From Marinomonas vulgaris (GTDB lineage: Bacteria; Pseudomonadota; Gammaproteobacteria; Pseudomonadales; Marinomonadaceae), in assembly GCF_018145875.1 (NCBI RefSeq), contig NZ_JAGSSV010000001.1, positions 62,001-126,000 on the forward strand: a stretch of 64,000 bases of DNA, read 5' to 3'. Below, piece after piece: positions 38,204-40,460 of the stretch (within the stretch, counting starts at the first letter, position 1; every line of letters starts with the position of its first letter). Position numbers and translations under genes: made by a program. The notes under the pieces are model-generated. The model saw nothing but the letters and a program-made list of their open reading frames with translations, made no database searches and was not told the origin of the DNA.

Positions 38204-38923
38204 TTATTCCACTAGCCAAATACGAAACGCTTTTTTGGCGTCGTTATCGGCTTTTTGAAACCAAAACTGCCCCATTTCAAATTGAATGTTAGACATATCT
38301 GGTTCGCTAGATTTATTCTCCATCCATATGCGCAATGCTTTGCGCGTGGCGCTGTCGGATTGGTTGTACCAAAATTTCAACATATCCAACGCCACATCGT
38401 CCGTGGTTAACGCCGGAGCAGGCACAGGCCCAGCTTTAACAGGATCTGGCGCCAGAGCCGCTAACTTAGCGACCTCTTCGCGATAATCTCGAGTATTCTG
38501 GAAGCCAGACTGCGCCTCTAATGCTTGTTGCTGGTAATTCACCGCTTTGCCCGTGGTATTGTCTAAAATCGTAAATTCAGGCTTTTGCGCGTTCGCTTCC
38601 GCTTGTCTTTTATTGGCAATATAAGGGGCTTTAAGTGTCAAGGAGGTGTTTTCTTCAAACTGTAAATTCAACACCACAGGTTCAGATTGAAACTCTTGAG
38701 TATCGTCACCGATACGCAATAATTTGTTAAAACGCACCACAATTTGATGCTCACCCGCGTCCACATCGACTTTAAAATCGTTGCCAAATTGTCGCGAGCT
38801 TTCTAAGTCGACATACATGATCTCATACGATCTTGGCACGTCGAATGTGGCCGCTACAGCGGGCATGGCCAACACACTCGCGCACAAGGCACTCCATGCT
38901 ACAAAACGATTTTTCACCTTCAT
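38204..38923 (-). CDS. DUF2057 family periplasmic protein
   Basis: 239 residues from ATG 38923 with GGAG upstream. A signal peptide ends at AMPAVA/ATFDV. The first 130 mature residues fit DUF2057 (YccT-like): VPRSYEIMYVDLE, AGEHQIVVRF, and the PEFTILD strand. A proline/alanine linker (about 155-168) leads to two tandem C-terminal repeats sharing FW...D...KA.RIW. The function is unknown. It is a single gene, with a small RNA candidate ending 142 bases upstream. Confidence 0.8.
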   Translation of the reverse strand: MKVKNRFVAWSALCASVLAMPAVAATFDVPRSYEIMYVDLESSRQFGNDFKVDVDAGEHQIVVRFNKLLRIGDDTQEFQSEPVVLNLQFEENTSLTLKAPYIANKRQAEANAQKPEFTILDNTTGKAVNYQQQALEAQSGFQNTRDYREEVAKLAALAPDPVKAGPVPAPALTTDDVALDMLKFWYNQSDSATRKALRIWMENKSSEPDMSNIQFEMGQFWFQKADNDAKKAFRIWLVE

Positions 38924-39064
38924 CAAACGCTCCTATCATCCTTTGGAATATGGCAGAAGAATGTAGCATATCGTTTTGTTGAATAAGCCTGCGAAAACAG
39001 GCTTAGAAGACGGTTACTTGATTTTGTCTTTTTTCCGAAGGTCGATAGGTTAAAAAGCGGGCAT

Positions 39065-39087
39065 AAAAAAAGGGAGCCGAAGCTCCC
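39065..39087 (-). terminator. Terminator of the small RNA candidate
   Basis: GGGAGC and GCTCCC form a stem closed by a stable UUCG tetraloop, followed by seven T residues on the minus strand. It is 195 bases past the GGDEF gene stop and 142 bases before the DUF2057 start, so it does not simply close a coding gene. Confidence 0.85.
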
Positions 39088-39213
39088 CATTTCCCCTCGT
39101 AACAGAGACCTCAATGACTATAGGCATTCATCATTTAGGCTAACTGTTACACCACGTTGGCACCGTGATTGAGCGATGAGACGACCCCATCCGCTGCAAT
39201 GTTCTTTGATAAT
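39065..39213 (-). ncRNA. Candidate small RNA of about 149 nt
   Basis: On the minus strand a predicted start near 39213 is followed by four consecutive stem-loops. SL1 pairs AGCGgATG with CATCGCT (39188-39195 with 39172-39178). SL2 pairs ATCACG with CGTGGT (39164-39169 with 39151-39156). SL3 pairs GTAACAG with CTGTTAC (39144-39150 with 39099-39105) and encloses CCTAAATGA/TCATTGAGG. The last is a terminator hairpin. No long open frame occupies the transcript. It matches no RNA family that I can recognise. It may be a trans-acting RNA or a leader of the DUF2057 gene. Confidence 0.6.
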
Positions 39214-39219
39214 TCAGAC

Positions 39220-39247
39220 ATTATAAACAGCTCATTGAGCAGTGCAA
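39220..39247 (-). promoter_or_regulatory. Sigma70-type promoter of the small RNA candidate
   Basis: TTGCAC (39242-39247) and a perfect TATAAT (39220-39225) are separated by 16 bases on the minus strand. This is the best promoter match seen in the window. It places a transcription start near 39213. Confidence 0.7.
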
Positions 39248-39281
39248 TAGATAACTGACCGATCGTACAGTTTTTTTACTC

Positions 39282-40460
39282 TTATGAAGAAATAGGTGAA
39301 GGAGAAGTCGACACCCGATTTCGGCCTTTCTTTTTTGATTGGTAAAGAGCGTCGTCAGCGCGCTTGAGTACTACCTCTGGCGACTCCCCCGCCGACGAAA
39401 ACGCCACCCCAATACTGACTGTCACACTGACGTCTATGTCTTGTTTCTTTTTGGGATCAAACACTTCGACCAGTGCTTCTTCAATATTTATTCTTAAATC
39501 ATCGAGGGTTTCTTTCGCCTGCGCTAATCCTTTGCCTCGAAACACCACAGTGAACTCTTCGCCACCATAACGAAACGCTTTGCCAGCGCCAGAAAAATGC
39601 ATCAATTGATAAGCCACATTTTTAAGTACCTTGTCTCCCATGTCGTGACCATAGGTGTCGTTAAACTTCTTAAAATGGTCTACGTCGACCATGGCAAGAG
39701 CGTACTCTTTGGGTAAGCCAACCAAATGCTCGTTTAAAGCGCGCCGACCGGGGAGTTTCGTCATGTCGTCCACGTACGCCATGCGATGGCTTTCGAGTAG
39801 TAAAAACCAAACCCACAGTAAAAATTGCGCCGACAAAAGGGTATCAAACTGCACCGAAGAGGAGGCAAAATGACTGATGATCAGCAGGCTTAATATGCTG
39901 ATCAAGCCGCTAGCTCGAAAAGCATCACCACTTAACCACCAAGCCGTGCCAATGGTGCCCACGCTGATCAGCAAGGCCGCACCAAGCAGTACATTAGACC
40001 AAGTGTATGAGGTATATAGAAAAGTCGCGTCCAAGAAGGCAAAAGACACCCAGCCGCGCTCAATCGCATAACACCAGGTAATCAGCATGGAAATAAATAA
40101 GCCACGGTTTATCGCGTAGCGATTAAAAAAGCCCCGTTCAGGAATCAGCCCAAGCAAGGCAATACAGCAACAAGACACCACCAAATACGCGGTGAAAGAC
40201 GCCGCCTGACCAAACTCGCCATGCAGTTTGGGTACCAATAAGAGGCACACCAAAATCAGCACTCGGCCTTTGTTAAAATGCCAGGCTAGCAAGATCGCAA
40301 TGCCTGCCAGTATAAAGGGCATAAAAGGCAATAGACTAAACCACAAAGGCGGCAACAAGCCGACGTACAAGCTTCCATAAACACTCAGCAGTAAAATACA
40401 ACAGGGTACAAACAAGGAGCCTAAGCGTTCACTCATAGAAGATAATATCCGTCGAATCAT
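39282..40460 (-). CDS. Membrane-bound diguanylate cyclase
   Basis: 392 residues. The N-terminal 220 residues hold about seven membrane helices in a MASE-like sensor with no clear ligand motif. The GGDEF domain follows (MTKLPGRRALNEHL..., VDHFKKFNDTYGHDMGDK, and active-site RYGGEEF). The GGEEF variant is compatible with cyclic-di-GMP synthesis. The inhibitory I-site RxxD five residues upstream is not present, so product inhibition may be weak. It is a single gene, divergent from bax. Confidence 0.92.
   Translation of the reverse strand: MIRRILSSMSERLGSLFVPCCILLLSVYGSLYVGLLPPLWFSLLPFMPFILAGIAILLAWHFNKGRVLILVCLLLVPKLHGEFGQAASFTAYLVVSCCCIALLGLIPERGFFNRYAINRGLFISMLITWCYAIERGWVSFAFLDATFLYTSYTWSNVLLGAALLISVGTIGTAWWLSGDAFRASGLISILSLLIISHFASSSVQFDTLLSAQFLLWVWFLLLESHRMAYVDDMTKLPGRRALNEHLVGLPKEYALAMVDVDHFKKFNDTYGHDMGDKVLKNVAYQLMHFSGAGKAFRYGGEEFTVVFRGKGLAQAKETLDDLRINIEEALVEVFDPKKKQDIDVSVTVSIGVAFSSAGESPEVVLKRADDALYQSKKKGRNRVSTSPSPISS

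What the first reader, a model, noticed from the sequence alone, without database searches (positions are those of the whole stretch)
39065..39247. Unannotated structured small RNA with its own promoter and terminator
Between the GGDEF gene and the DUF2057 gene, the minus strand shows TTGCAC-N16-TATAAT, a predicted start near 39213, three successive internal stem-loops (one nested, with 7-bp and 9-bp arms) and a UUCG-capped terminator with seven T residues. The unit is about 149 nt. It is not needed to end or start a coding gene, and I recognise no known RNA family. A 24-codon frame overlaps it, but its ATG lies inside the -10 element, so it would not be translated from this promoter. It could be a trans-acting RNA or a regulatory leader of the DUF2057 gene.
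Basis: partly seen in the sequence, partly recalled or inferred. Interest (0 to 1): 0.8.

Follow-up and report, generated by a model that had tools for sequence, protein, structure and literature searches.

The report
Conserved structured small RNA in Marinomonas
The window holds a so far unnamed small RNA gene, kept by every Marinomonas genome examined, with its own promoter and terminator and what looks like a binding site for a regulator of nucleobase metabolism.

Summary
A covariance model of the 3' ~102 nt hits 48 of 48 genomes of the genus (Marinomonas) at E <= 3e-11; no homologue was recognised outside it in the samples searched. Helices H2 and H3 have changes on both sides in 5 of 7 and 5 of 6 pairs. 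No Rfam family matches. DUF2057 follows the RNA in only 2 of 48 genomes, and in four genomes the RNA is apart from its usual downstream tetR gene, so a cis leader is unlikely: it looks like an independent RNA gene. New here: a palindrome resembling the RutR box (recalled) lies at two preferred distances from the -10, about one helical turn apart. The motif is enriched in the genus and recurs at xdhA, glyA/gcvT, ribokinase/nucleoside-hydrolase and other genes. Best reading: a trans-acting RNA controlled by a RutR-like TetR protein. Transcription, binding and targets are untested.

The parts
39255..39270 (-). RutR-like palindrome CTGTACGATCGGTCAG; its start is 45 bp upstream of the -10 start
   Evidence: 14-mer TGTACGATCGGTCA is one of 101 genus matches vs 15 for the reversed control; a site paired with a -10 was assigned in 45 of 48 homologous loci
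39242..39247 (-). -35 element TTGCAC
   Evidence: CTATTGCAC or CTATTGCGC visible upstream of many homologues
39220..39225 (-). -10 element TATAAT
   Evidence: TATAAT upstream in 26 of the first 27 loci, window included, 34 of 48 overall
39065..39213 (-). small RNA gene, about 149 nt (start predicted from the -10)
   Evidence: fold z -3.08; blastn homologues; CM hits in 48 of 48 genus genomes
39168..39200 (-). H1, 5' hairpin closed by AUUG/CAAU; sequence-variable in the genus
   Evidence: single-sequence folds of 47 of 48 loci, judged by eye: a hairpin here in most main-clade loci, not counted formally; the lowest-energy fold of the window itself leaves AUUG/CAAU unpaired
39151..39161 (-). mini-hairpin GCCA-ACG-UGGU, nearly invariant
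   Evidence: alignment A3; 100% paired but only one pair varies, on one side, so covariation does not test it
39099..39150 (-). H2, 7-bp stem GUAACAG/CUGUUAC
   Evidence: 5 of 7 pairs changed on both sides, 99.7% of cells paired, 41 distinct sequences
39113..39135 (-). H3, nested stem with loop GAAUGCCUAUA; GCCUA in 48 of 48
   Evidence: 5 of 6 pairs changed on both sides, 93.6% of cells paired, 26 distinct main-clade sequences; GCCTA 48 of 48
39089..39098 (-). conserved hinge GAGGGGAAAU between H2 and terminator
   Evidence: alignment A3
39065..39088 (-). intrinsic terminator, UUCG loop, U7 tail
   Evidence: conserved in A3

Best explanation
This is an independent gene for a structured small RNA found throughout the genus Marinomonas. 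Shown by sequence: a conserved promoter, a conserved fold (variable H1, mini-hairpin, H2 with nested H3, terminator), nearly invariant motifs (GCCAACGUGG, loop GCCUA, hinge AGGGG), an upstream palindrome at two preferred distances from the -10, and no constant downstream gene. Inferred: a TetR-family protein of the RutR (YcdC-like) type, most likely the one encoded beside the RNA in 44 of 48 genomes, binds the palindrome centred near -60 or -50 and controls transcription, probably as an activator, because the site lies upstream of the -35 without covering it; in one clade a second palindrome just after the -10 could add repression. The other genes that carry the motif (xdhA, hpxO, ribokinase/nucleoside hydrolase, NCS2 permease, glyA/gcvT) suggest a nucleobase signal. 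The RNA then acts in trans, most likely by short pairing of its invariant loop or hinge with mRNAs, aided by Hfq, which the genome encodes.
For: 48 of 48 genus genomes; covariation in H2 and H3 with controls; in G000, G022, G057 and G019 the RNA is not followed by tetR, yet each genome keeps a tetR orthologue elsewhere (75-88% identity to the query) and the RNA keeps its palindrome; spacing of the 14-mer start to the -10 start is 54-56 in 34 and 43-46 in 11 of 45 loci, none between within the 40-60 range scanned; motif 101 matches vs 15 control in 48 genomes; of 58 non-RNA sites inspected (18, 40) 18 lie at xdhA, 10 at a 63-aa small protein, 4 at ribokinase/nucleoside hydrolase, 4 at glyA/gcvT, 1 at hpxO, 1 at an NCS2 permease; the neighbour TetR carries the YcdC-like C-terminal domain PF08362; Hfq present. 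Precedent for a TetR-type protein activating sRNA genes: V. harveyi LuxR and qrr2-4 (PMC2680268, abstract and passages).
Against: No transcript data. Three RutR-like paralogues exist in the own genome, and the two others score higher against the RutR model (179.8 and 165.1 bits) than the neighbour protein (142.5), all below the cut-off of 368; which one binds is open and no binding was tested. 14 of the 58 inspected non-RNA sites lie inside genes and 6 elsewhere. In the own genome the strict motif hits only the RNA promoter and one intragenic place; whether that genome has xdhA was not checked. A looser pattern was not enriched there (75 vs 79 control). An upstream site fits an activator but does not prove the sign. 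The 12-nt complements of loop and hinge occur outside the RNA no more often than reversed controls (8 vs 14 and 18 vs 29), so targets are unknown. In 11 of 46 loci the palindrome extends outward by >= 4 pairs and could also end the GGDEF transcript. In L105 and L109 the assigned -10 is only 15 nt before the core, so H1 would not be transcribed there.
Confidence: 0.6

Rival explanations
1. Transcription-attenuating leader (riboswitch or attenuator) of the downstream gene: tetR in most species, DUF2057 in the window.
For: Same strand; the tetR match begins 86-209 nt after the core end in 44 of 48 loci; nearly invariant loops as in aptamers.
Against: Four genomes lack tetR behind the RNA but keep it elsewhere; in L016 the next gene is convergent; DUF2057 follows in only 2 of 48.
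Confidence: 0.12
2. Protein-binding RNA (sponge or RNP scaffold) rather than a base-pairing RNA; the invariant loops and hinge are a protein site. This can be combined with RutR-like control.
For: Invariant stretches without an excess of 12-nt complementary sites in 48 genomes.
Against: Not an evident CsrA sponge: in the 45 nt before the core plus the core, 44 of 48 have no ANGGA/AGGA motif and 4 have one; no exact GacA box in up to 330 nt upstream. CsrB/CsrC of M. mediterranea have both features (PMC8523701, abstract and passages). The longer 5' parts of long-form species were not counted. No partner known.
Confidence: 0.22
3. The upstream palindrome is only the terminator of the GGDEF gene, and the RNA is not controlled by a RutR-like protein.
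For: A and T runs flank it in many species; outward pairs >= 4 in 11 of 46 loci.
Against: Narrow spacing to the -10 and conserved half-site bases; the same 14-mer upstream of xdhA and other genes.
Confidence: 0.15
4. A small protein gene or a chance structure.
For: 24-codon frame in the window; without the terminator the fold z averages only -1.53, below -2 in 12 of 48 loci. Recurrent peptides such as MPIV...RGNGELRLPFF appear in part of the loci.
Against: The longest frame differs between loci (three different frames recur in the main clade), the recurrent peptides run across the terminator and follow from conserved nucleotides, their AUG is absent in 9 of 12 divergent loci by reading, and pairs change on both sides against shuffles and slides.
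Confidence: 0.02

Closest known systems
Qrr sRNAs of Vibrio harveyi with the TetR-type regulator LuxR (PMC2680268, abstract and passages)
   Same: A TetR-family protein with a palindromic site upstream of sRNA promoters
   Different: Qrr transcription needs phosphorylated LuxO; the sequences were not compared directly (no Rfam family matched ours); here the regulator is RutR-like and only inferred
E. coli RutR regulon (PMC10891134, introduction passages)
   Same: TetR-family protein, palindromic box of about 16 bp, pyrimidine and purine genes
   Different: The neighbour protein scores 142.5 bits against a RutR cut-off of 368; no sRNA target appears in the passages I saw. The box sequence itself is recalled
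CsrB/CsrC of M. mediterranea (PMC8523701, abstract and passages)
   Same: Stand-alone structured sRNA in the same genus with an intrinsic terminator
   Different: No exact GacA box and no repeated ANGGA motifs in the part counted here
nqrA motif of Marinomonas (mentioned in PMC11109978, passages)
   Same: Rare structured RNA reported from this genus
   Different: That motif lies upstream of nqrA; ours does not in the loci seen, and no Rfam family matches ours

Membership tests
stand-alone bacterial small RNA gene | own conserved promoter and intrinsic terminator | tested here: met
   (sequence only)
stand-alone bacterial small RNA gene | conserved RNA secondary structure with changes on both sides of pairs | tested here: met
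stand-alone bacterial small RNA gene | independence from neighbouring genes | tested here: met
stand-alone bacterial small RNA gene | detected transcript | not testable with these tools
   no RNA-seq held
Hfq-dependent base-pairing sRNA | Hfq in the genome | tested here: met
Hfq-dependent base-pairing sRNA | recurrent complementary mRNA sites | tested here: inconclusive
   12-nt complements of loop and hinge show no excess; shorter seeds not tested
Hfq-dependent base-pairing sRNA | Hfq binding | not testable with these tools
   needs experiment
CsrB/CsrC/RsmZ sponge RNAs | many ANGGA/AGGA motifs and a GacA box | tested here: not met
   44 of 48 have none and 4 have one in the core plus 45 nt upstream; no exact box in up to 330 nt upstream
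any Rfam 15 family | score at or above gathering threshold | tested here: not met
   sub-threshold hits have E 0.67-9.7
cis leader / riboswitch | fixed downstream gene | tested here: not met
   44 of 48 have tetR, 4 do not
RutR regulon | palindrome shared with nucleobase genes | tested here: met
   at genus level; not shown in the own genome
RutR regulon | regulator is RutR proper | tested here: not met
   142.5 bits vs 368 cut-off; paralogues 179.8 and 165.1

The most novel reading that the evidence does not exclude
A new genus-wide sRNA family that is the RNA arm of a nucleobase regulon: a RutR-like TetR protein switches the RNA on from an upstream site whose two preferred positions differ by one helical turn, linking purine/pyrimidine supply to post-transcriptional control.
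Probability: 0.4. Interest if true: 0.65.

Novelty: new member of a known kind. Interest (0 to 1): 0.52.

Why it matters
It adds a well-supported RNA family without a match in Rfam 15, present in every genome examined of a marine genus, and it comes with a concrete, cheap hypothesis (RutR-like control, nucleobase signal). If right it would be an example of a YcdC/RutR-type regulator driving an sRNA, and the near-invariant loops make target or partner discovery feasible.

Tried and rejected
Known RNA families: Rfam at gathering for the window and 20 homologous loci, and at E <= 10 for 401 bases, gave nothing usable. Leader of DUF2057 or tetR: disfavoured on synteny. CsrA sponge: not met. Coding: disfavoured. 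Relatives outside the genus: 46 of 64 genomes with a match and 38 of 39 are non-genus, none above 39 bits; I rescanned 12 non-genus loci and saw alignments for 8 of them, which rest mainly on the terminator; the others, and those, were not inspected. Genome-wide pattern scan: 38 matches, 36 Marinomonas, plus a Cupriavidus and a Bacteroidales MAG that I take as chance without inspecting them. Antisense sites of loop and hinge: 8 and 18 non-RNA matches against 14 and 29 in reversed controls, not inspected one by one. Loose operator pattern in the own genome: not enriched. AAAGAACATTG before upp in the own genome, similar to the RNA's 5' box, is not seen in L155 and L157. Papers: searches (26 papers, 20 listed; 5; 20, 12 listed; 10) for Marinomonas + small RNA / sRNA / noncoding RNA and RutR + sRNA; I saw listings, and passages of three of them (PMC5870890, PMC8523701, PMC11109978), and met no description of this RNA; only open-licence PMC papers are held. 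The E. coli RutR box sequence is recalled: one search found no paper with it and the source paper is not held.

Full report
What is there. On the minus strand, downstream of a GGDEF gene (39282-40460) and upstream of a DUF2057 gene (38204-38926; both Pfam-confirmed), lie TTGCAC, 16 nt, TATAAT, a ~149-nt unit and a UUCG terminator with U7. The unit folds at -49.3 kcal/mol, z -3.08, none of 200 shuffles as low. Rfam gives nothing at gathering for the window or for 20 homologous loci.

Conservation. A DNA search of 56 genomes found homologues at E < 1e-15 in 26 of 34 other genomes of the genus and in none of 21 genomes of other families. A covariance model of the 3' ~102 nt (R1) hits 48 of 48 genus genomes at E <= 3e-11: 36 with 99 bits or more, 12 divergent ones with 54-70 bits; 27 of these loci built the model. 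In 390 genomes of the order and 369 of the class (model R2) the best non-genus scores are 39 and 31 bits; the eight non-genus alignments shown rest mainly on the terminator. A pattern scan of genome contigs (84,980 species by the tool's description) gave 38 stretches, 36 of them Marinomonas (records near the window may be left out).

Structure. In 41 distinct sequences, H2 pairs in 99.7% of cells with 5 of 7 pairs changed on both sides; 0 of 500 shuffles reach any of the five measures and slid partners fall far below (counted together with the mini-hairpin). In 26 distinct main-clade sequences H3 has 5 of 6 pairs changed on both sides and 93.6% of cells paired; over that whole structure four measures are reached by 0 of 500 shuffles, but the number of pair types by 99 of 500. 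The mini-hairpin is almost invariant, so covariation does not test it. H1 is a sequence-variable hairpin in most main-clade loci by single folds judged by eye; in L105 and L109 the assigned -10 leaves no room for it. Mean fold z over 48 loci is -2.98, 41 of 48 below -2; without the terminator the mean is -1.53, 12 of 48 below -2, so the case rests on covariation and not on energy. GCCUA in the H3 loop is present in 48 of 48. Predicted lengths in 26 of the first 27 loci range from about 149 nt (window) to about 282 nt.

Neighbourhood. GGDEF is upstream in 45 of 48 loci, 45 of 47 scorable (L016 and L086 lack it; the L060 contig starts too close). A TetR gene follows on the same strand in 44 of 48; the exceptions are the window genome, L016, L086 and L116; DUF2057 follows in 2 of 48, L001 and L086. 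The four exceptions keep the TetR gene elsewhere: on another contig in G000 and G057, about 1.67 Mb away in G022, about 13 kb away in G019. So the RNA is not tied to a downstream gene. Around these four tetR genes, three loci (L031, L155, L158) show no motif match close to tetR; L157 has one roughly 60-180 nt before tetR.

The regulator. The neighbour TetR protein has the YcdC-like C-terminal domain (PF08362) and matches RutR models well below their cut-offs; two paralogues in the own genome score somewhat higher against RutR. A 14-bp palindromic motif begins 54-56 bp upstream of the -10 in 34 and 43-46 bp in 11 of 45 loci assigned; the window is of the second kind (44) although its two closest relocated relatives (L016, L086) are of the first (54, 55). 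The difference is about one helical turn. The loci are related, so they are not 45 independent events. Six divergent loci (L111-L116) have a second copy just after the -10. The strict motif TGWWCRATYGGTCA occurs 101 times in 48 genomes against 15 for the reversed control; by coordinates 25 are RNA promoters. Of the other 76 I inspected 58: 18 at xdhA, 10 before a 63-aa protein without family, 4 at ribokinase/nucleoside hydrolase, 4 at glyA/gcvT, 1 at hpxO, 1 at an NCS2 permease, 1 before mutM, 14 inside genes and 5 other. One example of each main type was tested against families: HpxO (569 bits, cut-off 500), SHMT and GcvT pass; the xdhA (426 vs 467, cut by the locus end), ribokinase (246 vs 300) and nucleoside-hydrolase (fragment) examples are best hits below cut-off; the permease passes Pfam PF00860. 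G022 and G019 show only two of the three paralogues yet keep the RNA's site, which argues against the amidohydrolase-linked paralogue as sole binder. In 11 of 46 loci the palindrome extends outward and may double as a GGDEF terminator.

How it most likely works. Inference: the RutR-like protein binds upstream and activates the promoter; the RNA, made under some nucleobase-related condition, acts in trans. Pairing versus protein binding is open: 12-nt complements of loop and hinge show no excess, Hfq is present, and it does not look like a CsrA sponge. LuxR acting on qrr genes is a precedent for TetR-type control of sRNAs (abstract and passages).

Noticed in passing
L227:1046-1234 (-) and nine other loci (L168, L194, L212, L218, L220, L232, L237, L240, L242): A conserved ~63-aa protein (MDSQQQYEALLAKWGY...) without Pfam or NCBIfam match (one copy tested) carries the same RutR-like motif about 66-68 bp before its ATG, followed by a second conserved palindrome TGTTGTAATAAAACAACA.
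   Followed up: partly
G000:C53 (L031), G022 (L157), G057 (L155): In three genomes the RNA locus is apart from the tetR-LysE-upp neighbourhood; the RNA now lies near an EamA transporter gene, with DUF2057 beside it in two of them and a glucosaminidase-type gene upstream.
   Followed up: partly
L111, L112, L113, L114, L115, L116: A second copy of the motif lies just after the -10 (TATTCTGACC...), suggesting added repression in this clade.
   Followed up: no
L016, L086: The GGDEF gene is missing upstream while the RNA and its palindrome are kept.
   Followed up: no
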